A stretch of DNA of 64,000 nt from Mermis nigrescens. Its lineage: Eukaryota > Nematoda > Enoplea > Mermithida > Mermithidae. Numbering within the stretch: position 1 is the first letter of the stretch; each line of letters opens with the position of its first letter. This document shows positions 5,953 to 44,893 of the stretch, piece by piece. A model generated the notes under the pieces. The model worked only from the letters and a program-made list of their open reading frames with translations. It was not told the origin of the DNA and searched no databases. The position numbers and the translations under genes are program-made. Location: NCBI GenBank assembly GCA_036768485.1, contig JAVLUZ010000619.1, positions 1-64,000 on the forward strand, in the 5' to 3' direction.

Positions 5953-6561
5953 AAATTCCACGCTCTAATTTTCCCCAAACTCGATCCGTTTTCCTCATAA
6001 CAAATCCAACAAAGTCACAACAATTACCTAAATAAATTCGATCAATAAAAACGTACCATTATTTTCAGTCAATTTTTGGGCATGCTATTCTTTACCCTCT
6101 AGTAAAATCATAAACGGATAAAGACGTGTTGAACAGTATACGCCCCGAACGGAGCAAGCAAAAATTGCCTGTGTCGGCCATATTTCAGGCCAACACGGCG
6201 GGGTATTGGTAAAAGTTTTCAACCAGCAATAACTGCACCTCGGATAAACCTCATGGATTACAGTATCGCCTCTGCGCAAAGCTGGGAGATGAGAATTTTT
6301 TCGGTTATATAGCTGATCTGGAACATCAACCCTACGGGTTGAACTGAAAAATAGGAAGGAGTTGCGTTCATTAAGTTATAAATAGCTGAGCAGTCGTTAA
6401 AAAATGCGCTTCGGCGTGCTCCTGAGCAAAATTTCTTTTCACCAATCAATCTGATTGTTTTAACTAACTTTTGTAGAATTTCCATGTACACAAACGGATC
6501 ACCGTACACCGTATAGTCTGCCAGGCACAATACAGGTCGACCTTAATGTTCTAGTACCTAT
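5953..6561. other. No gene seen
   Basis: This is AT-rich sequence between two repeats. Two short overlapping minus-strand ORFs (64 and 90 codons) show no domain, no codon-use signal and no conserved motif that I recognise. It may be older repeat sequence. Confidence 0.5.
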
Positions 6562-20588: not shown

Positions 20589-20594
20589 TACAAT
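20589..20594. repeat. Polinton target-site duplication, left copy (TACAAT)
   Basis: TACAAT lies directly outside the left TIR and again directly outside the right TIR at 34141-34146. A 6 bp duplication is the known integration signature of Polinton/Maverick integrases. Confidence 0.92.
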
Positions 20595-20975
20595 AGTAGT
20601 TAAGCCTGTGACCCTGGGGTGCAACACAAAGTGTATACGGCTATGTTTTGTGTTATAGGCCCCGCCCACTCGATCGTAGAGAAGCGGCCTCTCCTGTGTT
20701 ATAGCATAGGCGGATAAGCGCCCTGCTTGCGCCCTGGCTTTTCTCTCAGGGCGCAATGATGAGGGATGGGGGGCCCAGGGAAGCCAAGGAATGAGATACC
20801 TACATATAGGAAGAAGAATATTGCGCATTGGCAGCAAACTTATAATAAGCGCATTAACGAAGCATTTTTTGCAGCTGGTAATATCGCGCATTGGCAGCCT
20901 GTTTGGAATTTATAATAAGCGCACTGGCGAAGATAAGTAATATCGCGCATTGGTAGCGCATTTATAATAAGCGCA
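20595..20975 (+). repeat. Polinton left terminal inverted repeat
   Basis: The first 180 bases or so are nearly identical to the complement of 33960-34140. The rest is more diverged but made of the same short units, GCGCATTGGCAGC and TATAATAAGCGCA, repeated in different numbers at the two ends. It contains a GCGCCCT...AGGGCGC hairpin near 20720-20755. The 111-codon minus-strand ORF here is a by-product of the TIR. Confidence 0.9.
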
Positions 20976-21161
20976 TTTTGTTGACTGGAGAAGCAATAGC
21001 ATTAAATTGATAATTCTCGCGCCTGCTCAAATTTTTTTGAACGCGTCCAGCCCAATTTAAGTGTTTGTGATGAAATATTTATTTATAGTCTAGGTCCACG
21101 GTCTACTGCATCTTAATCATTCAACCCCCCAATTTCCAAGCCGTTTTGGACTTGCAAAATC

Positions 21162-21170
21162 TATAAATAC
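21162..21170 (+). promoter_or_regulatory. TATAAATAC box, Polinton ORF 1
   Basis: TATAAATAC ends 33 nt before the ATG at 21204. The same box recurs before most Polinton genes. Confidence 0.65.
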
Positions 21171-21203
21171 TAATAATTCTTTCATTAATTTAAATCTTCA
21201 AAA

Positions 21204-21524
21204 ATGGAGGAAAATATGGAATTGAGAAAACGTCCTTTTACGGATGTGGAGAAGAAACCTTATGGGCGGAAAATACGACCGCCTATTGAGTTATGTGGGA
21301 GGAATCTGGAGCGTCCCATGTACCCTCTCGATACATTTATGTAATTTTTGTCAAAAAATTCGTCTGAAAAAGACGTTTTTGAAGCAAATTCAGGAAAATG
21401 GTATTTTAACGTTCAAATGTGCCCAAGATGTTGTGAATATAATCGGGCATCCCAGGAGGCTGGGAACATGGTCATTAAAAAATATATTGCTCAACAGGTT
21501 GAAGAAGCGAAAAATGGCTTGTAA
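21204..21524 (+). pseudogene. Small Polinton protein of unknown function, in-frame stop
   Basis: The ATG at 21204 opens a 106-codon frame interrupted only by TAA at 21342-21344 (codon 47). The frame is otherwise open to the stop at 21522. The second part holds a CPRC motif followed by CEY, and a Gln/Glu/Lys-rich helical tail (IAQQVEEAKNG), which looks like real protein. The first part is basic and proline-containing. A TATAAATAC box sits 33 nt upstream. An alternative frame (21244-21549) is open but shows no motif, so I judge it a shadow. I do not recognise the family. A small zinc-binding or DNA-binding accessory protein is possible but unproven. Confidence 0.5.
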
Positions 21525-21566: not shown

Positions 21567-21893
21567 ATGAGTTCTCAAGGTGAATTGAGTTTTAATCATT
21601 TTGTGACCAAGTTGGCTGATAAAGCCAGTACAAGGTACATCACTTCTCACGATATACAAAGCATTGGCTCCTGCTTTTGGAGTTTGCTTTCTGAAGAATA
21701 CACAGAAAATCGCAAAAGCCTCGATAATCGGAAAGCATTTTGGAATTTTGCGCTTTATGTGAAACGATGCCTAATAAATCGTGAAATCGAGCCTATTTTA
21801 GATTTATGGCAAGATTTCGATCAAAATGGCAAAAATACATGGGAAAGCATGTATGAAAATTGCCTAAACGAGCGAGTTAGTGGTGTATTATAA
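21567..21893 (+). CDS. Polinton 108-residue protein of unknown function
   Basis: This is an intact frame from the ATG at 21567, preceded by a TATAAATAT box with the usual spacing. The protein is predicted to be mostly helical. It is rich in Trp and Phe, with FWSLL, FWNFALYVKRC and LDLWQDF-type segments and a helical C-terminus. It has no signal peptide or membrane segment. The gene lies next to the left TIR, in the position where Polintons and related viruses carry lineage-specific accessory genes that often target host responses, but nothing in the sequence shows such a role. I do not recognise a family. It is one of the few genes in the element without a lesion. Confidence 0.6.
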   Translation: MSSQGELSFNHFVTKLADKASTRYITSHDIQSIGSCFWSLLSEEYTENRKSLDNRKAFWNFALYVKRCLINREIEPILDLWQDFDQNGKNTWESMYENCLNERVSGVL

Positions 21894-22054: not shown

Positions 22055-22828
22055 CTAGGGCTTCTCAGGCATTTTTGTTATTAGATCATAATGATTATTA
22101 GCAGCGTGCAAGTGAATTACTTTCTCAGCCTCAGGCCCTTGAAAGTACAAAATATTGCCATGATAAACATTTATTTGGTAGTCTGGCACCAGACTCTTTT
22201 GAATTTTGTCTACAGCTTCAAGTCCATATTTCTCTTCATTAATACTGAGATCAGCTTTGTGCATCAGCTTTAATGCTAGTTGCTTTTGCATAGTATGCCT
22301 TGCTTTGTCACCTTTTCGAACAGATTCCCACTTAGGGCAGTTGTCTTGCTTTGCTATACCTGTTACAAGAGCTCTGGCTAATGATAAATTATCGTTTGAT
22401 GTGATTTTAATATATGCTCCACCATTTTTGCAAAAGTCACCTACTTCAAAGTCATAACCGGTACCCATTTGGGGTTTTTTGTCAACCAGAACTACTTTAA
22501 AAGTCAAGTCTTCACTTAAACAAAAGTCTTTTTGGAACTGAGCCACCTTTTCTATAATACTCAAAACCTTGTCAGCATTTATGTATTGACGTTGAGTGAA
22601 TGGTACTAACACAGGCGTATTAAGGCTTGGCTGTCTAATTTCAATGCCTACCATACTGTCAAAAGGACAGCCACGCAACATGAGGTTAATAGCTTTTTCA
22701 AAAATCTGTTCGAAAATCTCAAAGAGATTAGGGCATTTCTTGAAACGCAACAAAAATGCCTTAGCGGTCGTCCTAAACCTACGAACAGAAATGTGTGGGA
22801 GCTCATGTACTTCAAAGTACTGCTCCAT
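22055..22828 (-). pseudogene. polB: Protein-primed DNA polymerase B, N-terminal part only
   Basis: This 257-residue frame matches the N-terminal region of Polinton PolB. It has the conserved block KITSNDNLSLARALVTGIA at about residues 141-159, a Trp/Arg-Lys-Gly segment at 167-173, a YQINVY-like block at 217-222 and NHYDLIT at 245-251. In full-length proteins the zinc-binding, exonuclease and palm domains follow, to about 1,000 residues or more. Here the frame ends six codons after NHYDLIT and only about 160 bases remain before the neighbouring ORF, so the catalytic two-thirds is deleted. The ATG at 22828 is chosen because a TATAAATA box (22868-22861, minus strand) lies 32 nt upstream; the longer frame starts with TTG. 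It is divergent from the integrase gene. Confidence 0.8.
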
Positions 22829-22860
22829 TTTCAAATTAAAACTACATACTTACTTATCGT

Positions 22861-22917: not shown

Positions 22918-23972
22918 ATGAAAAAAGTGTTAAAGCACATATATTACGACCCTAAAACGGGATATAGTAGCGTGGAACAGCTAGAGAGGGCTAAAAAGTA
23001 AAGCCAAAAATAGACTGGTCCTACGTGAAACAATGGTTGGAAAAGCAGCCCACCTACACGTTACACAAACCCGCTCTCAAGAGGTATTCTCGAAATAAAG
23101 TGTTAGTAAGTAGCATTGATGAGCAATGGCAATGTGATATTGTAGATCTGCAGTCCTTAAGCAAGTTTAACGATAATTTTAAGTATCTCTTGAATTGCAT
23201 AGACATATTTTTAAAGTACGCATGGTCCATCGCTTTGAAATCTAAAAGTTCAGAAGATGTTCTGACCGCTTTCCAAAGCATTTTGCATTCATCAAATCGA
23301 AAACCGTACAAGCTGCAAACAGATGCAGGGACCGAATATACAAACAAAGAATTTCAAAAATTTCTTAAATCTGAATCTATCAATTTTTTCACGACTAAAA
23401 GCGAAATGAAGGCTATTATAGTCGAACGTTTTAATCGCACGCTTAAAGAACGTATGTGGCGGTACTTCACCAAGAGCAATTCATATAAATTTATTGATGT
23501 ATTACCTGACTTGATGAAAAACTATAATCACTCCAAGCATCGTACGATAGGTACCTCGCCAGCTAATGTTACAATCAAATATGAGACGGAAATTTTAAAT
23601 AAAACATTTAGGATTGATAAACAGAACGTTGTTTTTAAATTTAATATTGGTGATAAAGTCCGGCTGAGTAAAGTTAAGCGCGCTTTTGAAAAAGGATTTT
23701 GGCCCAACTGGACAGAGGAGTTTTTCATAATTAAGGAGAGGTTTGCTCGCACACCGCCCGTTTATGTTTTAGAAGACCTAATGGGCGAAAAAGTCGAGGG
23801 TATTTTTTATGAACCTGAACTGCAAAAAATTGATATATCCTCGGATGACTTGTTTATTGTTGAAAAGATTTTGAAAACGCATAAGAAAGGCAATAAAACT
23901 GATTATTTAGTGCGCTGGCGAGGGTACCCAGAAAAGTTTGATTCCTGGGTCTCAAACCTGATAAAGTTATAA
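22918..23972 (+). pseudogene. int: Polinton integrase (DDE family, chromodomain), frameshifted
   Basis: The retroviral-like integrase that inserts Polinton DNA. The first block from the ATG at 22918 encodes the typical N-terminal segment with YYDPKTGYSSVEQL. It runs into a stop after an A5 run at about 22993-22997, and the rest continues one frame over (23025-23972). The core has the expected acidic triad: Asp in WQCDIVD, Asp in QTDAGTEY, and Glu in VERFNRTLKER (residues 38, 100 and 134 of the downstream block, spacing 62 and 33). The C-terminus (about residues 275-315) is a chromodomain with YLVRWRGYP and SW. Such domains in Polinton integrases probably guide target choice. The frameshift is a single-base lesion in a homopolymer, so a sequencing error is possible. 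Confidence 0.9.
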
Positions 23973-24004: not shown

Positions 24005-24300
24005 TTTACACTTTACAATATTTTTTGTAAAGTTTGGGATATTTTTTGTAAAGTTTGGAAATTTTTTTGTAAAATTTGGAATATTTTTTGTAAAGTTTGG
24101 AATTTTTTTTGTAAAATTTGGAATATTTTTTGTAAAGTTTGGAATTAATTTTACGTGCTTAAGCATAGTACTTTTGCAAAGTTTGGAATATTTTTTGTAA
24201 AATTTGGAATATTTTTTGTTAAGTTTGGAATATTTTTTGTAAAGTTTGGAATATCTTTTGTATAAATTGGAAATTTTTTTGTAAAATTTGGAATATTACG
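24005..24300. repeat. Minisatellite of about 20 bp units inside the Polinton
   Basis: About a dozen copies of a unit close to TTTTTTGTAAAGTTTGGAAT lie between the 3' ends of the convergent integrase and TBP-like genes. One interruption near 24145-24175 is unrelated sequence. The array makes long but meaningless ORFs on both strands (a plus-strand frame of 75 codons and a minus-strand frame of 87 codons, both low complexity). Confidence 0.9.
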
Positions 24301-24814
24301 TATCTAAGTTGCATTTTTCAAGCATTGTTGAAACTAGTTTATATGCTATATGCAACTCATGCTTGTGCTTTGCACCTGTGAGAATCATTTTTCCACTTGT
24401 AAAGAGTAAAAAAGTCACTTTTCTAAATTTGTATACTAATTCGGGAAATAATTCTACTTCATACATGCATTTCCTTTTCACCAGCTCATAAAACTTACAA
24501 AGATCAATGCGGAATCCCAAGTTAGTTGAGCCAACAAACAACACTGGCTTTATTTTCAACATGAAATTCTCCATCTTCAGTATATCAATGAATGTCTTTA
24601 TCGTATTTTCGCCTTCTTGCATAGTTTTAGCTCCAACACATGCAATTTTACCCGACTTGAAAATCAGCAATGTTGCCTGAGGTAATCGAAATATGATGCC
24701 TGGAAATTTTGAGCGATTGTATTGCGCAGTATTTGGCAATTTAGGGTAGATATCATGTAGATTCAGCGTATTTGGTAGTGCTGTAGTCAGCACAATGTTC
24801 TGTATAGTTAGTAT
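24296..24814 (-). CDS. TATA-box-binding-protein-like protein encoded by the Polinton
   Basis: The protein matches the two-fold repeated DNA-binding core of TBP along its whole length. Counting from GTG at 24793, repeat 1 holds YNRSKFPGIIFR (25-36) and LLIFKSGKIACVGAK (42-56). Repeat 2 holds ELFPELVYKF (114-123) and FLLFTSGKMILTGAK (128-142). The four phenylalanines that in TBP wedge into the minor groove are all present (F30, F45, F116, F131), with equal 15-residue spacing in each half. It lacks the variable N-terminal domain of cellular TBPs. TBP-like similarity continues seven codons upstream of the GTG to an ATA at 24812-24814, where an ATG is expected, so the start codon may be mutated. 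The minus-strand box TATAAATATA (24850-24841) lies 26 nt upstream. The inferred role is recognition of the element's own TATAAATAC promoters. Confidence 0.85.
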   Translation of the reverse strand: MLTIQNIVLTTALPNTLNLHDIYPKLPNTAQYNRSKFPGIIFRLPQATLLIFKSGKIACVGAKTMQEGENTIKTFIDILKMENFMLKIKPVLFVGSTNLGFRIDLCKFYELVKRKCMYEVELFPELVYKFRKVTFLLFTSGKMILTGAKHKHELHIAYKLVSTMLEKCNLDT

Positions 24815-24818
24815 TTTC

Positions 24819-24827
24819 TATAAATAC
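24819..24827 (+). promoter_or_regulatory. TATAAATAC box, packaging ATPase
   Basis: CTATAAATAC ends 32 nt before the ATPase ATG at 24860. It overlaps the 5' region of the divergent TBP-like gene. Confidence 0.65.
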
Positions 24828-24840
24828 TTCATGATAAACT

Positions 24841-24850
24841 TATATTTATA
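24841..24850 (-). promoter_or_regulatory. TATAAATATA box, TBP-like gene
   Basis: On the minus strand TATAAATATA lies about 26 nt upstream of the presumed start of the TBP-like gene. Its distance from the plus-strand box at 24819 is only 13 nt, so the two divergent promoters overlap. Confidence 0.5.
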
Positions 24851-24859
24851 CATATAACC

Positions 24860-25509
24860 ATGATGTTCCAACATCCTTTCACCTGCCTTGTTTCAGGACC
24901 AACCAAGTCTGGCAAAACAACTTTTGTCACCCGATTAATCGAAAAAGAGCACACTTAATTGATATTAAAATCAAAAAGATTTGGAGGTGCTTTGCAGGAA
25001 ATCAGCCTCTTTATAAAAAATTAAATGATGTTTTATTCATAGAAGGGCTTCCTGATTTTAATTATTTAAAACAATTCAGTCATGTGCCACAACTTTTGAT
25101 TCTTGATGATCTTATGCAACAGAGCAAGGGTAATGCCCAGATTGTTCAACTTTTTACAAGGAGTTGTCATCATTGGAACATTAGCATTATACACATTGTT
25201 CAAAACGTTTTCTTTGATGATCTAAGAACTTCACGCATCAACTCTGATTATATAGTTTTATTCAAACACCCTGCTGATCAGCTACAGGCACAAATGCTTT
25301 CCAGACAGCTCTACCCCGCCAACGCTAAATATTTTCTAGAAGCTTATTCAGACGCTACTTTTCAGCCACATGGTTACCTTTTAATTGATCTAACTCAAAA
25401 TGCTAGAGATGAGCGCAGGCTTAAAACAAATATTTTTAGCCCTCATCCAACTGTTTATGTACAGAAATCTATAAATACTAGTAGAGACATTGCAACAAAA
25501 AATGGGTAA
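24860..25509 (+). pseudogene. A32/FtsK-like genome-packaging ATPase, frameshifted
   Basis: The ATPase that would drive DNA into the capsid. The first block from the ATG at 24860 has the Walker A motif GPTKSGKTT (residues 13-21) and stops at about 24957. The continuation in another frame starts at LIDIKIK and carries IWRCFAGNQPLY, the Walker B motif LLILDDLM (25096-25119), a QNVFF segment typical of the family and an Arg/Asn sensor-like region. The break lies in the run near 24950-24956 and looks like one lost base. The length of about 215 codons is normal for Polinton ATPases. The 3' end overlaps the next ORF's start (25502), and that gene's promoter box lies inside this coding sequence. Confidence 0.88.
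25470..25478 (+). promoter_or_regulatory. TATAAATAC box inside the ATPase 3' end
   Basis: CTATAAATACTAG ends 23 nt before the ATG at 25502 and is embedded in ATPase coding sequence. Confidence 0.65.
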
Positions 25510-25852
25510 AGAACGATTAAGACGCAATATTGGTTGTCTACATCTCCTAAGTCAAGCAAAAAAACCTAAAAGAACCGCTATTATAAATACTGCCAGCAAA
25601 GATCAAATCCTTTGTCTCTGTGACTGTGCAAACAACTTTCTGAATGGTAATATTCCTTTTGCTGAGAAGGATATAAATAAACTTCGAAGATATCAGAATC
25701 AAATAAGATACCTGACAAAGAATAGGCAGGCAACTACGGAACAAAAGAAAGATATTATAATACAGGAAGGTGGTTTCCTTCCTCTTTTACTTACTCCTAT
25801 ACTTACAATAGCTGGTAGTTTGTTAGCTGATGCAATAATTGGTAGAAAATGA
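25502..25852 (+). CDS. Small basic Polinton protein with hydrophobic tail
   Basis: Starting at the ATG at 25502 (MGKERLRRN), chosen because the TATAAATAC box ends 23 nt upstream, this gives 116 residues. The N-terminal half is Arg/Lys-rich. A central segment contains CLCDCANNFLNGNIPF. The C-terminus GGFLPLLLTPILTIAGSLL is a glycine-led hydrophobic, probably amphipathic helix. This layout recurs in a conserved small protein of arthropod Polintons, and it resembles in style the membrane-active or core proteins of adenovirus-like virions. The role is inferred, not shown. The stop codon overlaps the next gene's ATG (ATGA). Confidence 0.7.
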   Translation: MGKERLRRNIGCLHLLSQAKKPKRTAIINTASKDQILCLCDCANNFLNGNIPFAEKDINKLRRYQNQIRYLTKNRQATTEQKKDIIIQEGGFLPLLLTPILTIAGSLLADAIIGRK

Positions 25853-26415
25853 AACATACTGAAAAGATGATTCTTATACCCGCTGAAATCAGTGAGCGGA
25901 CTAAACCTATTGATGTTGTGCTAGATTCTTTGGATAATAAAATGCAAAAAGTTTTGCATAGCAAAAGCGTAGCTCCTGAAATAAAACTCATGAAATACAA
26001 TCAGGCGCTTAACAGATTTAAACGATTATATGAACAAAAGCAGCAGCCATATAGAGCTAGTATACTTAAAGATGCAAAAAATGCTTTGAGTGATGAACTT
26101 GTGCTCATTGGTATGCCAAAAAATCAGATTCCAAAGGCCAAACTCCTTCTTCACTACATTTGTACAAATCCATTTATTGAAATTGAGCCTAATGGCGAGC
26201 TTGTGATAGATAGCAATAAAATTGAAGGCTCAAACATTACAGATTTTGTTAATGATCTTGCACGTGAGCGTAAGAAAATAAGTAGGCATCCTGGCACAAA
26301 AGAATTGCTGAAAGTCTTTAATCGCACAAATGTTCCACTGGAAAGTATAGCAAATAGACAAGGTAAGGAGATTTTTGCTGCAGGTAGTGAATTTGACTGG
26401 GATGTAAGTCTATAA
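25849..26415 (+). CDS. Conserved Polinton protein, 188 residues
   Basis: This is an intact frame whose ATG overlaps the previous stop (ATGA at 25849-25852). The overlap suggests coupled translation, because no TATA box of the element type precedes it. An internal Met at 25867 is an alternative start. The protein is charged and mostly helical. A C-terminal module (about residues 100-180) contains FIEIEPNGELVIDSNKIEGSNITDFVNDL and a basic patch. I recognise the overall pattern (helical N-terminus, then a GELV-D-GS-I--LV-D block) as a protein regularly found just upstream of capsid genes in Polintons, but its function is not known to me. It is possibly a virion or assembly protein. Confidence 0.72.
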   Translation: MKHTEKMILIPAEISERTKPIDVVLDSLDNKMQKVLHSKSVAPEIKLMKYNQALNRFKRLYEQKQQPYRASILKDAKNALSDELVLIGMPKNQIPKAKLLLHYICTNPFIEIEPNGELVIDSNKIEGSNITDFVNDLARERKKISRHPGTKELLKVFNRTNVPLESIANRQGKEIFAAGSEFDWDVSL

Positions 26416-26419
26416 ATAC
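26411..26419 (+). promoter_or_regulatory. TATAAATAC box, glycine-rich virion-type gene
   Basis: TATAAATAC overlaps the TAA of the upstream gene and ends 36 nt before the ATG at 26456. Confidence 0.65.
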
Positions 26420-26455
26420 TTATCATATTTAATTCCTTCAAACAAAATTACAAAA

Positions 26456-26786
26456 ATGCACATTCAATTCAATCCTAACGATTACAACATTTGGTTGGAC
26501 TATTACACAGGGCAGGCTGCCCAAACAGGTTATGGGTTGGAGGGGTATAAAGGCATCCCATTCCAGCGGGGCGTGGGTCTTGGCAGCTTTTTTCCGTTCG
26601 CTTTTCAGAATGGCAGTCCCAGTTTTGCAGTCAATTGGTAAGCAAGTTGGAAAACATGCTCTAGTTGCAGGTTCATACATAGCGTCTGACTTGGCACGAG
26701 GAAAGCCGCTTTTTGAATCTACTAAAGAACACTCAAAGCGAGAAACTGCACAACTTTTTGATGAAGCCTCTCATGCCCTTCAGTAG
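26456..26786 (+). pseudogene. Small Gly-rich/basic Polinton virion-type protein, frameshifted
   Basis: The first block from the ATG at 26456 encodes a Tyr/Gly-rich N-terminus with GYGLEGYKGIPFQRGVGLG. At a run of six T (26588-26593) the reading shifts. The next frame gives FRSLFRMAVPVLQSIGKQVG, then KHALVAG and an Asp/Glu-containing tail ending at 26786. A Gly-rich start followed by an FRxLFR-V-P amphipathic helix is typical of a short conserved protein encoded just ahead of the major capsid gene in Polintons, thought to be a virion component. One extra T in the run explains the break. Neither half alone is a plausible product. Confidence 0.72.
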
Positions 26787-26821
26787 CAGCAAGGAGAGGG
26801 TCTTGGTAGTCGCCCAAAGTC

Positions 26822-26830
26822 TATAAATAC
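26822..26830 (+). promoter_or_regulatory. TATAAATAC box, major capsid gene
   Basis: CTATAAATACTAG ends 32 nt before the ATG at 26863. This supports 26863 rather than the in-frame ATG at 26842 as the start. Confidence 0.65.
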
Positions 26831-26862
26831 TAGCATGATAGATGCTTTTTCGAAACAAAAAA

Positions 26863-28155
26863 ATGGCTCTCATAAACGGAAAATCTATTCCCAGTACTAA
26901 AACTGAATTGGACCTTTTCACGGTCCCTCCTACTCAAGTAGTGATAAAGCGTGGTTTTTGGCATGAAATTCAACCTACAAATCCTATTACCAATGAGGGG
27001 CTCTATGAATTTAGAGTACCTCCTGATCCACATTATATTCAGCTCAATAAAAACTGCATTTATATGCTACTGAGAATCAAAAAACCAGTTGTTGCTGCTG
27101 GAGCAGCAGTGCCTGACTATGCGCCTATCAATCTTATTGGTAATACTTTCTTCAAGCAAGTAAAATGCTTTTTAGGAGGCAAATTAGTTTTTGACAGCTC
27201 TGATAAATATGCATATAGATCATATTTCGAAACTGAATTGAATTATGGCAATGATGCCAAACATTCACACTTGCAATCTGCGCTGTACTTTCATGAAGGT
27301 GGAGGCGATGTTGACACAAAAGAGAATGAAGCTTTCAAGAAACGTTCAAAATGTTCTAAGATGAAAATGTTGTGGAAGTCGCGGCCCCACTGCACATTGA
27401 CATGTTCTTGCAAGACAGATATTTAGTTAATTTTACCAATTTCCGCCTAGAATTACACAGAAATAATAATGCATTTGTTTTGCAGTGCTTTGAGGATGTC
27501 AGCCTTGACTTAAAAGTCTCCCAAATGAAATTATTTATTCGAAAAGTTGAGGTTTTGGACACTGTGAATTTAGCTCTTGAGCAAACAATGCTTTCATATA
27601 CAGCAAAATATCCCATAAGGCGTGTAGCTTTGACTAATTTGCACATTTCAAATCCTGCGAGAGAAACGCCCAATTATACATTGTTCACTGGTCAGCTGCC
27701 TAGGCGTATAGTGTTTGCCTGTGCTGAAGGCAGTGCTTATCGAGGCAACTTGGCAAAATCGCCATTCAACTTCAAACCATTCAGCTTAAATGATGTAAAA
27801 GTAACGTGTGGAGGTATAACATATCCTGCTTACCCACTCAGCATTTCATTTAAACATGACAGGTACTTGCAAGCTTATACTCAGATGTTTGATGCATTAG
27901 ATATTGGGCACAAAGGTAATTTTATTAGCAGAGAAGATTTTAAAACAAGTCACTGCTTCTTTGTGTTCGATTTGACCCCTGATGCAGATGATGGAGGACA
28001 CTGGGACCTAGTTCGCAAAGGAATCATCGAGCATCGCTGTTAGGTTTTCTGAAAATTTGCCCGATTCTGGCATTGAAATCATTATATATGCTGAATTTGA
28101 TAACTTAATAATGATTGATAAAAATCGAAACACGTTTCATGACTATGATGCATAA
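26863..28155 (+). pseudogene. mcp: Major capsid protein (double jelly-roll), two frameshifts
   Basis: The hexon-like capsid protein. The start MALINGKSIP is chosen by its TATA spacing. Block 1 (26863 to about 27360) has the characteristic SKTELDLF-type opening, PPTQ and VPPDPHYI segments and the INLIGNTFFKQ strand of the first jelly roll. Block 2 (about 27361 to 28030, another frame) carries the second jelly roll with PLHIDMF, the RRVALTNLHI segment, the LPRRIVFA segment and SLNDVKVTCGG. Block 3 (about 28030-28155) returns to a third frame with IIIYAEFDNLIMID and ends in TAA at 28153. The total of about 430 codons fits the family. The two breaks, near 27360 and 28030, each look like a one-base indel. 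Confidence 0.88.
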
Positions 28156-28157
28156 AC

Positions 28158-28538
28158 ATGAACACTATTGAAATATTCAAAATTCTCAGACATAATAATA
28201 TATTTGCAGACGTTTTCCCCATAGATCTTCTGCCACCTATAAATAATTACCCTGCGGCTCTGGTTGTAAATTTGGACTCCAGTAAAGAACCAGGATCGCA
28301 CTGGGTCGCAATTTATTTTGAAAATAATAAGCATTGCAACTATTTTGACAGCTATGGGCTAGAACCAAATATTCAATTGCATCAGTACATTTCTGATAAT
28401 GCGCTCTCATTTACATACAATAATATACAAGTACAAGGGCTTTTTTCAATTAGCTTTGGTCATATGTGTATCTACTTTTTGGTCTGCATGAGCCAAGGCA
28501 TAACTTTCACAAACATTGTTCTGTCTATGCATCAGTAA
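28158..28538 (+). pseudogene. pro: Adenain-like maturation protease, catalytic Cys lost
   Basis: A cysteine protease of the adenovirus-protease/Ulp1 type that would process virion proteins. The frame is 126 codons starting 2 nt after the capsid gene's stop, with no clear TATA box. Catalytic His48 (GSHWVAIYF), Asp64 (NYFDSYG) and oxyanion Gln93 are present. The nucleophile position, seven residues after the Gln and directly before Gly, is Phe100 (codon TTT, 28455-28457) instead of Cys. Family members read CGxxC here, and the second Cys (C103) is kept. A single G-to-T change (TGT to TTT) would explain it. The C-terminus after YFL is shorter than usual, so truncation is also likely. Confidence 0.82.
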
Positions 28539-28554: not shown

Positions 28555-28956
28555 TTCAATAAACTTGAATTATAAACATGGATACAAAACAGTTTTACGT
28601 AACGCTTCCGAACAATTCCCAAGAAACAAACACTGCAGCCACATTTGTTACCAATCTGCCTAGACAAATCGCATTAACTGGTGACTGGGATGTTGGGTTA
28701 TCTGAAATAATTTATGCAAATACATGGCACAATGTTGCCGAGGAGCAGAATATGATACAATTTTACGATTTAAAAAATAATGTTTGAATAAAAATGCTTA
28801 TTCCTCGAGCAAGATATCTAAATATACATGATCTTGTTGAAACAATCAGTGAAGGAATAAAAACGGTTAGTTTGAAAGAAAAATTTGAATGCATACAATA
28901 TTTCAGTATAAAGTATGATGAAAATAGAAAATTTTGTCACTTAACAATCAATCTTA

Positions 28957-31900
28957 GATAGCGCGTTAGCGGTACCTATACATATACTTGGGTACCCCCA
29001 ACACCTGTGCACCCCCCTACAGCTATAACGGGACACTTCTGGAAGGTGCGATTTTTTTAAAAGAAAGATAATAAAAAAATTCGCTGCCCGTGTTTTTTGT
29101 TTTTCTTGAAACTCAAAATTGACTGTGTAAAGAAGGTGTAAAGTTTTTATGTAACATTATAACATAGGACAAATTTTGGGACCTTTTTACTGCGGCATGT
29201 GAACAACTGAGTATTGATGACTCGAAGGACTGAACAGGATAGGATAATAGAGGGATGAATTCTACAGATGACACTTTTTTTGTTTTTTGAAATTCGCATT
29301 AGTTATCGAATGGCAGTGTAAAGAGTGCGAAAATCTGGGGGTGAAAAAGCACTTTTTGGTCGAGTTTTCAACCTTCCTATGTCCGATACTAACTCCGGTT
29401 ATGAGGTTTTTAAAATGTTTTCTGACAGAAATGTAGAGCGGATCAAGGGCTACATTCTGCATATAAGCAAAGTCTTCTATGCTCTATGGTGAGTTAGATC
29501 CTGGGGTTTAAAGTTTACACTCTAGTGGATGGTGTAAAAAACGGATTTTAACTAAGATTTCTCTGCCAAATTTTTCCGCTTATGAGTCAGTGTAAATCTA
29601 AGACAGCATTGATAAAGTGCCTCATAGGGGCTAAACATCGCAGCAAACCGCATTTAAAAAAACGCAATATTGAGTTATTTATGGGGGTGTAAAGTTCGAA
29701 ATCAGAGGTAAAAAATGGGCGAAAAAACACGTTTTTTCCGAAGTTTGATTGATAAATCATACCAAATAATTTTTGCAACAGAATTTTGGCGCACAGGAAT
29801 GTACTACGATTTAAAAGCTACAAATTGTACCAAACCGAATTTCTTTAAACTCAATGGAGAGTTCGGTACGGAATTTTAAAGTTTACAGTGTTCTAAATGA
29901 TGGAAAATACGTTTTTGTTGCGTTTTTTGTTCGCCACTTTCTCCGTCCAGAAGTCGGGATAAGTCTAATAGAATAAAAATAAAGTGCTTTATATCGGGTG
30001 CATGTCAAAGCAAATTGTCTATACATTAATATTTAGCGAGTGTAAAGTCAAAAATTTGGAGTTTAAAATGCGTTTCTGTCTTGTTTTTTCTGCCTGCTTC
30101 TCCGGTTTCGAGTCAGGGACATGCTTATCAAGTCTAGAAATGGACCAGGAACCAAATTTGATATGCCAGTCTGGCGCATATGTTTACACTCTACGGTGTT
30201 GTAAAGTAGTTTACACCAATTGTTAGTTTGCCCATAGAACATTATGTAGACTTAATTTTTTCATAAATATTAATCGTAATATCGGAACAATATCAAAATT
30301 ACGAATCTGACTAAAATCTTCTTTACACTAGGTGTTTACATGAAGTTTACACTACATATGTATTTATCTTCGTTTTTGAGCATTCCAGAAACCTAATTTT
30401 TTCCTGGAGTATAGAAGTTTTCAAAGGATCAAATGTGAGACGTCACGTAGGCGCGTTTGTTTACATCCAACAGTGATGTAAAGTAGTTTACACTCATTGT
30501 TTATATGTCCTCAGACCATTGTAGAGACATAATTTTTTCATGAATGTTGATCATAATATCCGAGTAATTTTTTACACTGCATGTTAGCCTTTGTTCTAGA
30601 GCATTGCAAAAACCGAAATTTTTTCCTGAGATATAAAAATTTACAGGGAATGAAATATTTACGTCAGTTGGGCGCGCTTGCTTACACTCAGCAGTATTGC
30701 AAAGTGGTTTAAACCTAATGTTTATTGTCTTTAAAACATTATGGAGACTCATTTTTCCATAAATGTTGAAAGAAATATCGGAGCAATATCAAAATTACGA
30801 ATCCGACTAAAATATTCTTTACGCTATGTGTTTGTGTAAAGTTTACATTACGTGTTAACCTTAATTCGATAGACTTGCAGAGACTTTGTAACTGAAGTCA
30901 AGAAATTTTCAAGGATTCATGTGTGAGACATCAATTAAGTGAGTTTGTTTACCCTCAAAAGTAATCTAAAGTGATTTAAAAATTATGTTCAAGTGTCCTT
31001 AGATCATTGAAGAGATGTAATTTTGTCTTAAATGGGTTGCATTAAAGTTAAATCCTTCTTAGCCGTGTTTATAATATGTTTCACAAAATCTTGTACATGG
31101 AGGGCTATCGTTTAATTGATGTAAATTGCCTGCAAAAGTGGTTTAAAATGAACCAGCAACCACACTACTGTGCACAGAAGTCGACAAAGATATGCAGCTT
31201 TATTGTAATCATGTACATTAATAAGTCGTAAACTGTTAGTATTCTCTACACCTAGTAGTTGTGTAAAGTTTGCACTATTCATTTGTTGTTAATATGTAGT
31301 CTATACTACAAATTTATTTTACTACCAAATCAAAGCGTTAGTGTTCCTTACATTTGATATTTGCGTGAAGTTTTTGAATTTTTGCCGAAAAACTTTGCCT
31401 TCTAATTTACCAACATCCCGCCTTTTCCATTTTCTTAAAGTTTAAAATCTTTCATAATTATCTTAATAATTTAATGGTAGGTTTTAACTTTAAGTTTCTC
31501 TTGGTTTACAACTCTCGCTTAGCAAGCTCATTTTTCAAAACTTTTTCATAGTGATCAGATTAGTCGCGTTTAGTTTGGAATTGGTGGACGGTCGTTATTT
31601 TATTACTCGGCTTAAATAAACCAAGTGACTATCTTTTGATTATTTCTTTATCGCAAATTCAAACACCCAATTTTCAATTAGAAAATTGATCCAATTTTCG
31701 ATTTGAAAATTGAAAATTGAGTGTTTTCAATTTCAAAAGTCACAACACATTGTGCTTGTGTATTGATTGAGTGAGGATTTGCAATGTGAATTCGTTGGTT
31801 ACATATTTGTGCTTGATTATAAGTGAACTGCACATTAAGAAGAAGTAACTTAATGCAATTTTAATTTGAAAATGGATGGTGTCAATAAGGTTGTCTTCTT

Positions 31901-32822
31901 TAAAAAGGATAATGCTGATGTTAAGAACAATATTGTTCTGCCGCGTTCTTGGACTGTTGTCATTATTGTGGCATGTTACTGATTGTATTTACTGACTGAT
32001 GTACTGAAATCACGCTAATTAAAAGTAGTGTACTAGCAAAGAAAAATGCTCCGATGGAACAAAAAAGATGAATATACTTGGAATTGTGGATTATTATGGA
32101 TGTAAAAGGAGGGGACTAGGAAAAATCTACCTAAAGTCGTAAAATCTGCTCAAAATCACACTTTCTCTAAGCAACGCAAAAAATCGAAGTATATTCTGCG
32201 GCCTCTAAAAAGTGTCTTTTTTAAACAATTTTCAAAATTTCAGATAATAAACGAAATCTATAATGTTTCCTTTTTTTAAATTGCTGGCAAGTAGCAACAC
32301 TGACTAGCTTCGTATCCTGATTGAAAGAAAACTTAGTGATATTGTATTTAAAGTTGTTTTATTTTGCTATGAGCATTATTGCAAGCAAAGCAGGGGCCGA
32401 TTGATTAGTGCACACAATCGTTGCGGGCATGCTAGTGTACCTACATTTAGTCTGTTTCAAGTCAACTCACGCGTTTCCTACTGTTTTGAACCAACAATTC
32501 TTGCAATTGTTTTGGATGCATCGATGTTTGCTATTTCATTCAATTGGCTTAGAAAGACTGTTACTCGATATCATTTCCCATAGCTGCTGCATAGCTAACG
32601 TGCTGCTTTTTCAATCATTTTTATAGTTAAATATTTATTCTAATGTGTTGACCGCAGAATATACTTCGATTTTTTGCGTTGCTTAGAGAAATTGTGATTT
32701 TTAGCAGATTTTACGACTTTAGGTAGATTTTTCCTAGTCCCCTCCTTTTACATCCATAATAATCCACAATTCCAAGTATATTCATCTTTTTTGTTCCATC
32801 GGAGCATTTTTCTTTGCTAGTA
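28957..32822 (+). repeat. Repeat family A-B composite inserted in the minor capsid gene
   Basis: It starts near TAGATAGCGCGTTAGCGG and ends TTTGCTAGTA. From about 29100 to 31400 it contains many copies of words built on GTGTAAAGTTTACAC. The last 788 bases (32033-32820) form a foldback unit. The same order of sequence occurs in reverse orientation at 47989-52386, and the left portion recurs at 19893-20588 and 57872-58650. No coding sequence is recognised. No convincing target duplication was found: CTTAGATA on the left and CTTAATAT on the right are only partly alike. Confidence 0.75.
32033..32820. mobile_element. Foldback unit B, copy 1, TA-flanked
   Basis: It has inverted termini CTAGCAAAGAAAAATGCTCC and complement, TIRs of about 175 bases, and TA on both sides (32031-32032 and 32821-32822). 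It has about 430 bases of non-coding centre. A 749-base copy with the same termini lies at 47991-48739. The structure resembles a Tc1/mariner-type MITE, but in both copies it sits exactly at the edge of repeat family A, so it may be the structured terminus of that larger repeat. Confidence 0.75.
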
Positions 32823-33225
32823 CTTAATATATTCGAAGTGTAAAGCTGACAAAGCATTTAATGTATATGCTAGGATTTCTAGAAAGTCAGCTTAGCGATA
32901 TAAATTATACTGTCGCACAAGAATTAATCATAGCTGCCCATCATCCTCCTGACATGCTGGGTGGAATGCATAATTCTTACGTGTATTGTGACATAGTTGA
33001 ACCTCAAATCGTTGGAAATGTTTTTGCACCGCTTCTGCAGGTTGTGAATATAGAAGGAAAATATATGGATATTGTTAATCATGCATATATTACTCCATAT
33101 TATATACCTGTGCTCAAAAAATCATTCAATACCATTGAAGTGAACATTAAAAGTGATCAAGATAAACCTGTGCCTTTTGAATTTGGCAAGACTATAGTTA
33201 AATTGCATTTCAGACGCCAGTAGGT

Positions 33226-33744: not shown

Positions 33745-34140
33745 TAAAAAATGCGCATATTATAAATTCCGCTGCCAATACGCTTATTATAAATTCGCTG
33801 CCAATGCGCGATATTATAAATTCCACGCGCAATATTACCAGCTGCAAAAAAATGCTTCAACAATGCGCGATATTACGCACACTGTTTCGCCAATTTTATA
33901 ATAGTGTAGGTATGCACCTTACAATATGTATGTTAATTCATTGGCTTGCTCAGCTTCCCCTTCCCCATGCCTCATCATTGCGCCCTGAGAGAAAAGTCAG
34001 GGGCGCAAGCAGAGCGCTTATCCGCCTATGCTATAACACAGGAGAGGCCGCTTCTCTACGATCAAGTGGGCGGGGCCTATAATACAAAACATAGCCGTAT
34101 ATACTTTGTGTTGCACCCTAGGGTCACAGGCTTAACTACT
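33745..34140 (-). repeat. Polinton right terminal inverted repeat
   Basis: This is the complement of the left TIR, ending CTTAACTACT. It has the same hairpin (GCGCCCTGA and its complement near 33980-34010) and the same GCGC/TATAAT sub-repeats in a different arrangement. Plus-strand ORFs here (33804-34082 and 33946-34203) mirror the left-TIR ORF and are not genes. Confidence 0.9.
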
Positions 34141-34146
34141 TACAAT
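34141..34146. repeat. Polinton target-site duplication, right copy (TACAAT)
   Basis: Identical to 20589-20594. Joining the flanks recreates an uninterrupted repeat-family-A segment like the one at about 50700-50760 (complement). Confidence 0.92.
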
Positions 34147-41196: not shown

Positions 41197-42056
41197 CTAG
41201 TCGCACAAACGTTTTGAGGCTTTAATAAACCCCAAAAGTTGAGCAACAGGCTCCTGTAAAACGGCCGAGGGTTCAATATGTGGAGCATGGAAGAACCTAG
41301 CTCTCAATTTATCAAACCCAGGGCAGGGACAAAGGAAGTGGATAGAATCCTCTTCTGTGAGCAGACATTTTGCGCATTTGGGGTTGTCAGAAACCCCAAT
41401 AGTACACAGGTGTCTGTTGAGGGGACAGTGTCCAGTTAAGAGACTAGTTACTGTCTTAAGCAGCTTACGATCTAAGCTGATCAGGAGCTGGCTATTTTCT
41501 TGCATGGCTTCTCCATAAAGGATCTGGCCTGACGGCAAGTCTTTTGCTCACTCTAATATTGCACATGTTGTTCCCTGACCCAGCTGTTGATGTCAGCCTC
41601 AGCAACAGCTCTGGAGACAGCAACTACCGGTTCTGGGCCAATATCTTTACGTGCTGATCCCATTCTTGCAGCATGATCTGCAAATTCATTGCCCTCAATG
41701 CTGCAGTGACCTAGGACCCATAATAATTTGACATTTTTATCCTGCGAGAGTTCTTGCAAAGCAATAACACACTCGAGAACTAACTTTGAAGACACTTTTG
41801 GAAATAGAAGTGACTTCAGAGCAGATTGACTGTCAGAGCAAATGAAGATGTTCTCATTTCTGATGGCCATCAATTCTCTGCTACGGCAGCATTGTAAAAT
41901 AGCGAGTATTTCAGCCTGAAAGACAGTACACATACTGCCTAAGGTAAAATACCGCATCTGTTTTAACTTCTGGAAATAGATGCCCGCGCCTGAGGTATTC
42001 ACAAAGCGTGATCCATCAGTGTAGCAGACAATTCCAGGAGGCGAGAGAATATTCAC
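41197..42056 (-). pseudogene. LINE ORF2: RNase H domain and zinc-knuckle tail
   Basis: The frame at 41553-42056 is RNase H: YTDGS (first Asp), FQAEILAI (Glu), CSDSQSALKS (Asp) and LGHCSIEGNEFAD (His and final Asp). All catalytic positions are present. The neighbouring frame at 41197-41538 continues with a RLLTGHCPLNRHL-type segment and C-x2-C-x8-H-x4-C (CAKCLLTEEDSIHFLCPC), the metal-binding tail common behind RNase H in such LINEs. A stop or frame change separates the two blocks near 41540. RNase H removes the RNA strand during target-primed reverse transcription. Confidence 0.85.
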
Positions 42057-42254
42057 TCTAGATTTTTCTTAGTCATCACTAGTGGGAAACTGAATGGTAT
42101 AAAGTCTACCAAAAATAAATTTTGGTACAATAAAGTCACTTGGCATTTTGAGTACTGGCCAATTGCCCTTAGCCCTAACAGCATTGTGACCTACAACCTT
42201 GCCTTTTGCATTCCAACTGCCAGCTATGTTTAGTCGATATGCAGCTGCCCTTGC

Positions 42255-43811
42255 TTAACCCTCCACAAAGATATGCAGGGGAGGCAGGTCCAGCAAGACT
42301 TCCATGGCTGCAGTCGGTGTGGTGCACATGGCACTACAAATGCTGAGGCAAGCCATTCTATGTAAATGACTAAGCTGACATTTCACAGTAGACAAGTGTG
42401 CACAAGGCCACCAGATTAGTGAAGTATCGGTGATCATGGGTCTAATCACAGACACGAAAAGCCAACGCATGACCTGTGGTGATAGACCCCAGGATTTTCC
42501 TACAGCTCTACGACATTGCCAGAATGCATTAACAGCCTTCTGACATTTGACCTCTACATGATTGCGCCAGTTTAATTTTTGGTCCAAAATAAGTCCCAAA
42601 AATTTGACCTGGTTTGCACGTTGTAGTGGCGTACCATAGAAAATTGGTGGTTTAAACCCATCAAGTTTCCGTTTATGAAGTGAATAGCACCATTCCGGTT
42701 TTCTGTGGGTTCACAGATAGACCATTATGGTGACACCACTGTTCCACCTTGGCTAAACCATTTTCCATAAGTGAGGAAATGGTGTCAAGGAACCATCCAG
42801 TAACAAGGATTGCCAAATGATCAGCATATCCTTGAATGTAGAGAGCCAGACTTTTGCAAATTCTGCAAAAGTTCGTCCTACAAAGGCACCACAGCAAAGG
42901 AGATAGTACACCTCCTTGTGGACAGCCTTTAGTCGTAGTAAAGATCATGCTGTCTCCACAAGAGTCAGTCATGATATGGCGAAATCTTAGCATAACATCA
43001 ATCCATTTAACAATGGTCTGATGTACGCCATGATTGGATGCTGCTTTTGCAGATAGCACTGAAGGTTGTATTGTCAAATGCCCCTTCAATGTCCAGAAAA
43101 ACGCCCAGTGTGAATTGTTTGTTGTCTAATGCCCGTTCAATCCTAGAAACTAGTTCATGAAGGGCCGTATCAACAGACTTTCCACACTGATACGCATGTT
43201 GTGTAACATGCAAAGGATGTTCCAGCAAGGGACCATCTCTCTCTTATAAAGCGATCGATTAATCTTTCCATACACTCCAGTAAGAAGGAGGAAAGACTAA
43301 TTGGTCTGAAGGATTTTGCCAGGTCATAGGAACTACGCCCTGGCTTAGGAATAAAGATGACCTTTACTTGTTGCCAGGCTATAGGAACATAGCCAAGAGC
43401 TATTCATCTTCGATAAATATTCACTAGGGGTCTCACCAGCATGTCCAGTCCTTCCTGCAAAAGAGCTGGAAAAATGCCATCAACCCCTAGAGTCTTGTAG
43501 GGTTCAAAAGACTTTACAGCCCAGCAAACCTTATCAGGTGTTATCACCTTGCAGGCCAGAACTTGGTCACCAAAGCCAGAAAAACTGGTTGGGCCCAATG
43601 TGTCCGGATATGCCTCATTTCCAACTGCAAAGCTGCCAGGAAAATGAGTGTCAAGAAGGTGAAGCAGGGTTTCCATTCGGTTGAGTGTATATTGACCCGA
43701 AGGTAGTTTTATTGAGCCAACTTCACCTACTTGTGGTTTACATAAAATGCGGCAAAGCCTAGCAGCATCCGACATTTTATCAATATTGGAGCAGTAGTCC
43801 TGCCAGCACAA
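42255..43811 (-). pseudogene. LINE ORF2: reverse transcriptase domain
   Basis: Pieces in different frames (43404-43811, 43007-43228, 42673-43089, 42255-42599) together cover the RT. Visible motifs are GVFLDIEGAFDNT (motif A Asp), TTKGCPQGGVLSPLLW (motif B), GYADHLAIL (motif C) and a MGLILDQKLNWRNHV thumb-type segment. Motif C should be YADD, but the second Asp is His (codon 42817-42819, minus strand), which would abolish catalysis. Frame changes occur near 43240-43400, 43030 and 42640. The linker to the endonuclease lies in 43404-44070. Confidence 0.85.
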
Positions 43812-44067
43812 AAGCTTTCTAGTGCGTATAAGATGCTTATACTCCAGTCAAACCTTGCAATAATCAGCCCAATCGGAAACTGATTGAGATAATTTCGCTT
43901 GATTCCAAGCTCTCCTACTTTTCTTACGGAGGTCTTGGAGCTCCCTATTCCACCAGGGAATAAGTTTGCTCTTTTCCCTCTGTAATCTGCAGGAGTACTC
44001 ATAAGAGGATGTAAGAGCTTGCTGTACAAAGTCAAAAGCACCCTCTATGTTCTCTTTTGTTGAGCAA

Positions 44068-44770
44068 CTAGGAGGTCCGAGAACCCAAGCGACTACCAAG
44101 GTGCTGCTTAAAAAGAGCCCAATTAGTGGACCTTGGATTCCTGTACAACCTAGAAGAAAAGGAATCAGCATGTAAAGAGAAGCGTACCTGTCTGTAGTCA
44201 GATAGAGACTCCTCTTGTGAGACATGCCAATTTCTTATATCATTAGCGAGGTCGAGAGAACATAAGGTTAGATCAATAACCTCCTGTCTCTTTGCTACAA
44301 CAAATGTAGGTTCACTACCTCTATTTAATAAAATTAAATTGGTAGAGACTAAATATTCAGCAAGTGCAGTCCCACGTTTATTGGTATCGCTGCTGCCCCA
44401 CAAAGTGTGGTGAGCATTGGCATCACACGCAATAATTAGTGGTATCTGCTTTTTACTGCAGTAGTCAACCAGAAGAGGAAAAGCTCTACCTGGAGGTAAA
44501 TGAGGAGAGTCAAAAGGCAGGTATGCTGATGTAACAATAATGTTACGCCAGTGCCCTGCACTTTTATAGCTTAACTCAACAGACACCATGTCACGGTTGC
44601 TAAATTGTTGGAGGAGCACTGGGTTAAGTTTCCGTGAGGCAAGCACGCTGAGCCCTTGGTCCTTGTACCGCACTCCCTACTAACACAGTATATAATTTAT
44701 CACTTAATCCACATACCTTGTTCTTATAGATCCAAGGCTCCTGGATCAACGCTAGTTTGTCTGCAGTTTC
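44068..44770 (-). pseudogene. LINE ORF2: AP-like endonuclease
   Basis: The endonuclease that nicks target DNA for insertion. An LALIQEPWIYKNKV segment near 44700-44765 holds the catalytic Glu. A frame change follows near 44665. The main block (44068-44673) then has VTSAYLP, IIACDANAHHTLWGSSDTNKRG (metal-binding Asp/Asn), FVVAKRQEVIDLTL and a SLSDYRQV end, where the family usually has SDH (here Tyr instead of His). That substitution and the frame change suggest inactivity. Confidence 0.82.
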
Positions 44771-44893
44771 GCTAGGCAGCGACTAAGTACACCAGTCGCA
44801 CCTTGGCTATGCTGCAAGTTAATCTGGAATAATTCCAGTACTGATTGAGATGGGAGAGTACTAGTACCAACCATCCTAATCTATGTACAAATT

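What the first reader, a model, noticed from the sequence alone, without database searches (positions are those of the whole stretch)
24296..24814. A Polinton that encodes a TATA-binding-protein relative
The minus-strand gene between the integrase and the packaging ATPase encodes the whole two-repeat TBP fold. Seen in the sequence: two matching halves (F-x14-F spacing in both), IFKSGKI and LFTSGKM saddle strands, VGAK and LTGAK turns, and all four phenylalanines that in TBP intercalate and bend DNA. Known: TBP homologues occur in cells and in some large DNA viruses. To my knowledge TBP is not part of the usual Polinton gene set. Inferred: this lineage captured a TBP gene and uses it to direct RNA polymerase II, or another host polymerase, to its own promoters.
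Basis: partly seen in the sequence, partly recalled or inferred. Interest (0 to 1): 0.92.

Follow-up and report, generated by a model that had tools for sequence, protein, structure and literature searches.

The report
Polinton carrying its own TATA-binding protein
A virus-like mobile element (a Polinton) in what looks like an animal genome carries its own version of TBP, the protein that marks where genes start, and one identical TATA-type signal stands in front of several of its genes, which suggests that the element brings its own start switch for transcription.

Summary
Confirmed: the minus-strand ORF 24296-24817 encodes a two-repeat TATA-binding protein (Pfam PF00352, E=1.8e-36; AlphaFold2 pLDDT 88, top PDB folds are TBPs). 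It lies inside a Polinton with termini at 20595 and 34140 and a TACAAT target-site duplication. This copy is decayed, and the TBP frame has no in-frame start ATG before its core.

It is unlikely to be a recent host retrocopy: 36% identical to mammalian TBP, with a sister protein, P0190, at 54% (support 100/100). Both keep the four DNA-kinking Phe and the TFIIB-facing residues; both lost N253 and T218 and changed the TFIIA face. The donor and P0190's genomic context are unresolved.

New here: the 12-mer TCTATAAATACT occurs five times in 64 kb, all in the element, upstream of + strand ORFs; no copy in 100 shuffles. Best reading: an element-encoded TBP that starts transcription at the element's own boxes. 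Binding is untested. The papers found and searched report no TBP in a Polinton, but key original papers were not held. The own-genome search did not complete (22 tries), so other copies, synteny and dN/dS were not examined.

The parts
20589..20594 (.). left copy of the 6-bp target-site duplication TACAAT
20595..20979 (+). left terminal inverted repeat, begins AGTAGTTAAGCC
   Evidence: gapped alignment of the two ends; 140-nt ungapped part 96% complementary
21160..21171 (+). exact box TCTATAAATACT, TATA 42 nt before ATG 21204 of a short, apparently broken ORF
   Evidence: first ORF of 60 aa or more starts at 21244
21567..21893 (+). ORF of 108 aa, unknown; TATAAATA (not the exact box) 39 nt upstream
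   Evidence: no PHROGs or NCBIfam match
22055..22834 (-). probable N-terminal part of the Polinton DNA polymerase, truncated before the polymerase domain; box variant TCTATAAATAAC upstream
   Evidence: recalled motifs only; no Pfam, PHROGs or NCBIfam match
23025..23972 (+). integrase, RVE core plus chromodomain
   Evidence: Pfam rve E=5.3e-12, Chromo 3.3e-8
24017..24297 (.). 21-bp tandem repeat between the convergent 3' ends of integrase and TBP genes
24296..24817 (-). TATA-binding protein ORF (stop-to-stop, no in-frame start ATG before the core)
24817..24828 (+). exact box TCTATAAATACT before the ATPase; overlaps the 5' edge of the TBP frame on the other strand
   Evidence: TATA 41 or 44 nt before the ATPase ATG
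24841..24852 (-). TATA-like site TGTATAAATATA upstream of the TBP ORF
24860..25509 (+). A32-type packaging ATPase; Walker A GPTKSGKT present, reading frame changes soon after it
   Evidence: 116 relatives, best 70% identity; frames
25468..25479 (+). exact box TCTATAAATACT, TATA 32 nt before ATG 25502; inside the ATPase 3' end
25502..25852 (+). ORF of 116 aa from ATG 25502, unknown
   Evidence: the 120-aa frame from 25490 has no NCBIfam match
25849..26415 (+). ORF of 188 aa, unknown
26409..26420 (+). exact box TCTATAAATACT, TATA 45 nt before ATG 26456
26456..26641 (+). ORF of 61 aa, unknown
26820..26831 (+). exact box TCTATAAATACT before the capsid ORF; TATA 41 nt before ATG 26863, or 20 before ATG 26842
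26842..28155 (+). major capsid gene (double jelly roll), frame changes twice
   Evidence: sub-threshold Pfam DJR-like E=0.0029 for one piece; frames
28158..28538 (+). adenain-like protease
   Evidence: Pfam Peptidase_C5 E=4.1e-4, 20.5 bits, cut-off 21.3
28572..33223 (+). penton-like gene (recalled), one internal stop, split at about 28961-32828 by roughly 3.9 kb of other repeats; exact borders not determined
   Evidence: frames; repeats
33748..34140 (-). right terminal inverted repeat
34141..34146 (.). right copy of the target-site duplication TACAAT

Best explanation
A Polinton lineage carries a compact, core-only TBP as one of its own genes. Shown: TBP sequence and predicted fold, position inside the TIR/TSD-bounded element, long divergence with conserved DNA-kinking and TFIIB-facing residues, and one shared 12-bp TATA box before several ORFs. 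Inferred: the protein, made early from a different TATA-like promoter, binds the TCTATAAATACT boxes, bends them with its four phenylalanines and recruits host TFIIB and RNA polymerase II, without the usual TFIIA contact, to transcribe the packaging, capsid and other late genes. It would thus bypass or compete with host TFIID.
For: Pfam E=1.8e-36. AF2 pLDDT 88; all 44 PDB matches with E<=0.001 are TBPs or TBP complexes and fusions. Sister P0190, 54% identity, 100/100. Of 39 columns conserved at 85% or more in 43 other TBP rows, the window keeps 30 and P0190 keeps 29. Four Phe, N163, T309, E280 and E282 kept in both; 283 is L in the window and I in P0190, both usual in other eukaryotic rows; N253->L and T218->V in both; 187 is Q in both against E in 30 of 30 eukaryotic rows (residue roles and numbering recalled). 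Box: 5 exact 12-mers in the window, all in the element and on the + strand, TATA 32-45 nt before the ATGs I take as starts; largest count in 100 shuffles 0. TATAAATA 13 in 9.7 kb of element vs 10 in the other 54.3 kb, Fisher p=5e-6, region chosen after it was seen. Precedent: a large algal virus with TBP and TFIIB genes, read by its authors as redirecting host RNA polymerase (PMC12085832, passages).
Against: Host TBP should also use TATAAATA, so the boxes do not require an element TBP. This TBP frame has no start ATG and the copy is decayed. N253 and T218, DNA-contact residues of normal TBP (recalled), are lost. P0190's context is unknown. No other copy or related Polinton DNA could be examined. 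No exact box was seen before the integrase, protease or penton-like ORFs, and one ORF served by a box is short and seems broken. With 2 mismatches allowed, 24 sites occur against 11.8 expected, so many looser matches are background.
Confidence: 0.58

Rival explanations
1. Decoy or inhibitor: the element's TBP binds host TFIIB or promoters and shuts down host transcription, while the element's TATA boxes are read by the host's own TBP.
For: TFIIB face kept while N253, T218 and TFIIA-face residues changed; TATAAATA is a usable host TATA box (general knowledge).
Against: All four DNA-kinking Phe, N163 and T309 are kept in both window and P0190, which a pure decoy of TFIIB would not need; the flanks of the 12-bp box are identical beyond the TATA core.
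Confidence: 0.17
2. Targeting or replication factor: the TBP helps the neighbouring integrase find host promoters, or bends DNA at the element's ends, rather than starting transcription.
For: Gene lies next to the integrase; the Ty3 retrotransposon integrates near TBP-containing TFIIIB (recalled).
Against: The shared boxes lie before ORFs, not at the termini; a single insertion site (flanked by TACAAT) says nothing about targeting.
Confidence: 0.08
3. Passenger: a TBP gene caught from a host or another virus, without a lasting role, now decaying with this copy.
For: No start ATG in this copy; other genes of the copy are broken; insect-type donor not rejected (p-AU 0.134).
Against: 36% identity to mammalian TBP yet an open 173-codon core and TBP-type sites conserved; sister P0190, 54% identical.
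Confidence: 0.12
4. Helper dependence: as in virophages, the boxes are late promoters of a co-infecting large DNA virus, and the TBP came from such a virus.
For: Mavirus-type elements share a TCTA late motif with their giant virus (PMC8547959, passages); large DNA viruses encode TBPs.
Against: The window TBP is nearer in sequence to cellular TBPs (36-43%) than to the 6 TBPs from viral contigs tried (29-34%).
Confidence: 0.05

Closest known systems
Cellular TATA-binding protein core (Pfam PF00352)
   Same: two-repeat saddle fold, four intercalating Phe, YExE(L/I)FP segment that faces TFIIB
   Different: 36% identical to mammalian TBP; core only; N253, T218 and TFIIA-face residues changed; repeat-2 loop two residues shorter
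TBPs of large DNA viruses (Nucleocytoviricota in BFVD; Megavirus chilensis; Chrysochromulina parva virus BQ1; mirusviruses)
   Same: TBP encoded by a eukaryotic DNA virus (passages in PMC11464507, PMC12085832, PMC10132985)
   Different: genomes far larger; in the 50 BFVD rows shown identity is 8-23%
Animal Polintons/Mavericks and adintoviruses
   Same: TIRs, 6-bp TSD, chromodomain integrase, A32-type ATPase (best relative 70% identity), adenain-like protease, DJR capsid
   Different: usual gene set has no TBP (recalled); no TBP or TATA in the main texts of PMC8097293, PMC11071308, PMC11071296, PMC8363768
Mavirus-type virophages with the TCTA promoter motif
   Same: one short motif containing TCTA before genes (PMC8547959, passages)
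   Different: here a 12-bp TATA box, with a TBP encoded in the same element

Membership tests
TATA-binding protein (PF00352) | profile match over both repeats above the curated cut-off | tested here: met
   124.2 bits vs cut-off 22.9, two stretches
TATA-binding protein (PF00352) | saddle fold | tested here: met
   AF2 with 44 rows pLDDT 88, pTM 0.71, all 44 PDB matches with E<=0.001 are TBPs or TBP complexes and fusions; with 2 rows pLDDT only 59
TATA-binding protein (PF00352) | four DNA-intercalating Phe | tested here: met
TATA-binding protein (PF00352) | minor-groove contacts N163, N253, T218, T309 (recalled roles) | tested here: not met
   N163 and T309 kept; N253->L and T218->V in window and P0190. 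These are not needed for family membership by profile, but they weaken the claim of ordinary DNA reading
Archaeal TBP (NCBIfam PRK00394 models) | score above curated cut-off | tested here: not met
   best 112.8 bits vs 270
TATA-binding protein (PF00352) | binds TATA DNA and TFIIB | not testable with these tools
   needs protein
Polinton/Maverick | TIRs with 6-bp TSD | tested here: met
Polinton/Maverick | RVE integrase with chromodomain | tested here: met
Polinton/Maverick | A32-type packaging ATPase | tested here: met
   116 protein relatives, many with precomputed Pfam PF04665; the window piece itself is sub-threshold for Pox_A32 (E=0.022)
Polinton/Maverick | double-jelly-roll capsid and adenain-like protease | tested here: inconclusive
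   both below Pfam cut-offs (E=0.0029 and 4.1e-4), in the usual order
Polinton/Maverick | protein-primed DNA polymerase B | tested here: inconclusive
   N-terminal stretch recognised by recalled motifs only; no profile match; polymerase domain absent in this copy
Adintoviridae | placement by PolB phylogeny | not tested
   no polymerase domain here

The most novel reading that the evidence does not exclude
A mid-sized mobile DNA virus of animals carries a private transcription-start system: an element-specific TBP with re-tuned DNA reading and no need of TFIIA, paired with a conserved 12-bp box before its late genes, giving an early-to-late switch that is independent of host TFIID.
Probability: 0.4. 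Interest if true: 0.88.

Novelty: new variant of a known kind. Interest (0 to 1): 0.74.

Why it matters
TBP is the universal starting factor of eukaryotic and archaeal transcription and is otherwise known from cells and large DNA viruses. A Polinton with its own TBP and matching promoter boxes would show that an element with only about 10 kb of its own sequence can carry its own promoter-recognition factor. It would be a small natural system for asking how TBP changes its DNA and cofactor specificity, and a link between Polintons and the transcription modules of larger viruses.

Tried and rejected
Recent host retrocopy: rejected as the main reading (36% identity to mammalian TBP; sister P0190); retrocopy marks such as a poly-A tail were not specifically tested. 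Chance ORF: rejected. Donor: the best PDB hit is archaeal and most pairwise scores favour archaea. The tree without P0190 groups the window with the eukaryotic rows (95/88); with P0190 the pair sits between eukaryotic and archaeal rows with weak support (68/77 and 77/96). Left open. Capture from an insect-type TBP/TRF is not rejected (p-AU 0.134), nor is kinship with P0225 (p-AU 0.412).

Searches that led nowhere: the first protein search gave only P0001 and missed P0190, so its silence is weak evidence. Viral contigs was scanned 8 of 8 times: 7 scans gave no confirmed relative and one gave 12 TBP loci, whose neighbouring genes I did not examine. The phages collection gave 3 weak transposase-type matches to the integrase. 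The first structure model (2 rows) was poor.

Rows used: one search used 28 rows (6 of 12 viral loci, 16 of 80 archaeal loci). One search used 46 rows: 34 of the 120 proteins listed (181 passed) plus 12 of the 28 rows; 11 archaeal and 5 viral rows were dropped to keep it small, among them the two longest viral branches. Alignment A5 used 36 of 80 archaeal and 6 of 12 viral loci; L035 was left out for a stop.

Papers: searches (listings, capped at 20 rows) showed no title or shown abstract start that puts TBP in a Polinton. 'Find' in main texts gave 0 TBP and 0 TATA in PMC11071308, PMC11071296, PMC10120064, PMC8097293, PMC7805220, PMC9952930, PMC8363768, PMC4642659 and 0 TBP in PMC12220804 and PMC8547959. 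The two papers holding both words 'Polinton' and 'TBP' speak of TBP in large viruses (passages). PMC10675990 (passage) reports TBP genes in algal viral elements that lack polymerase, packaging ATPase and DJR capsid genes. Two original papers and one review were not held. Supplements were not searched.

Full report
Observation. The minus-strand frame 24296-24817 is open for 173 codons between stops; none of 20,000 first-order Markov sequences made from it stayed open over that length. Its product matches Pfam TBP at E=1.8e-36 over both repeats and solved TBPs at up to 2.6e-25. An AlphaFold2 model made with 44 aligned rows reaches pLDDT 88, and all 44 PDB matches with E<=0.001 are TBPs or TBP complexes and fusions; with only two rows the model was poor (pLDDT 59).

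Setting. The gene lies in a Polinton. Inverted termini beginning AGTAGTTAAGCC stand at 20595 and 34140, and TACAAT flanks both ends. Inside are a chromodomain integrase, an A32-type ATPase with 116 protein relatives at up to 70% identity, a capsid gene and a protease matched below Pfam cut-offs, a penton-like gene (recalled) split by about 3.9 kb of other repeats, and an N-terminal stretch that I recognise from memory as Polinton polymerase but that matched no profile. The copy is decayed: a frame change after Walker A of the ATPase, two in the capsid gene, a stop in the penton-like gene, no polymerase domain. The TBP frame lacks an in-frame ATG before the core; upstream ATGs in that frame run into a TAG that is itself part of the ATPase's TATA box on the other strand. 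So in this copy the start is either lost or non-ATG.

Age and constraint. Identity to mammalian TBP is 36%, to Chaetomium 37%, to the 18 archaeal rows 35-43%, to 6 TBPs from viral contigs 29-34%. A second-round search with a two-row alignment found P0190, a 174-aa protein from a 1670-bp metagenome contig, 54% identical and sister to the window TBP with 100/100 support. Of 39 columns conserved at 85% or more in 43 other rows, the window keeps 30 and P0190 keeps 29; between the two, 30 of 39 conserved and 60 of 132 other columns are identical. This shows long conservation of TBP-type sites.

What changed. Both keep the four Phe, N163, T309 and the TFIIB-facing E280 and E282; 283 is L in the window and I in P0190, both common in other rows. 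Both have L at 253 (N in 30 of 30 eukaryotic rows), V at 218 (T in 28 of 30) and Q at 187 (E in 30 of 30). Of the other residues that I recall as facing TFIIA, 180 is Y in both (the column is variable: A in 19 of 30), 201 is absent in the window and N in P0190 (R in 23 of 30), and 185 is kept as N in the window but E in P0190 (roles and numbering recalled). I infer altered DNA reading, kept TFIIB docking and loss of ordinary TFIIA docking.

Promoter boxes. The 12-mer TCTATAAATACT occurs five times in 64 kb. All five are in the element and on the + strand, before ORFs 21204, ATPase, 25502, 26456 and capsid; the largest count in 100 shuffles was 0. TATA lies 42, 41 or 44, 32, 45 and 41 nt before the ATGs that I take as starts, or 20 if the capsid starts at 26842; the ORF at 21204 is short and seems broken, and the first ORF of 60 aa or more there starts at 21244. 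With two mismatches allowed there are 24 matches against 11.8 expected (none of 100 shuffles reached 24), 11 of them in the element outside the nested stretch; many of the looser ones are background. TATAAATA is found 13 times in the 9.7 kb of element and 10 times in the other 54.3 kb (Fisher p=5e-6; region chosen after it was seen). The truncated polymerase gene (TCTATAAATAAC) and TBP (TGTATAAATATA) have variants. No exact box stands before the integrase, protease or penton-like ORFs. Early genes with other promoters and some late genes with the exact box would fit; this is inference.

Origin. Without P0190 the window TBP groups with eukaryotes (95/88). With P0190 the pair lies between eukaryotic and archaeal rows with weak support (68/77 and 77/96). 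Capture from insect-type TBP is not rejected (p-AU 0.134). The donor is open.

Limits. The genome search did not complete in 22 tries, so neither other copies in this genome nor the host species was examined. The host is taken to be an animal from the Polinton type, a U4 snRNA and a LINE with endonuclease, RT and RNase H; this is inference. Viral contigs gave no Polinton relative in these searches. The first protein search missed P0190, so negative protein searches here are weak.

Literature. The listings show no report of TBP in a Polinton by title or shown abstract start. Ten Polinton, virophage or adintovirus papers have no 'TBP' in the main text. The two papers that hold both words place TBP in large viruses (passages); one of these, on an algal virus, reads its TBP and TFIIB as tools to redirect host RNA polymerase. 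Mirusviruses carry TBP in 59% of genomes (PMC10132985, passages). Two original papers and a review were not held, and supplements were not searched.

Verdict. A real gene that is new to this kind of element as far as the searches show, with an unexpected shared promoter box. The mechanism is plausible and testable, not shown.

Noticed in passing
6143-6283 (-): U4 spliceosomal RNA match, 114.4 bits over the full model.
   Followed up: no
24017-24297: 21-bp tandem repeat, 13.3 copies, between the convergent 3' ends of the integrase and TBP genes.
   Followed up: no
32030-32823: MITE-like repeat with 172-nt inverted arms, 99% complementary, nested in the Polinton; a related stretch lies at about 48.0-48.9 kb, about 90% identical.
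   Followed up: partly
41197-45836 (-): LINE with endonuclease, reverse transcriptase and RNase H domains in several frames.
   Followed up: partly
28158-28538 (+): In the adenain-like protease the place where I expect the catalytic Cys (recalled motif) reads Phe, so the enzyme may be dead in this copy.
   Followed up: no
P0225 (9616-bp contig, source ena): Another compact 176-aa TBP that shares GFRIDL, V at 218 and the shortened repeat-2 loop with the window TBP; kinship neither shown nor rejected.
   Followed up: partly
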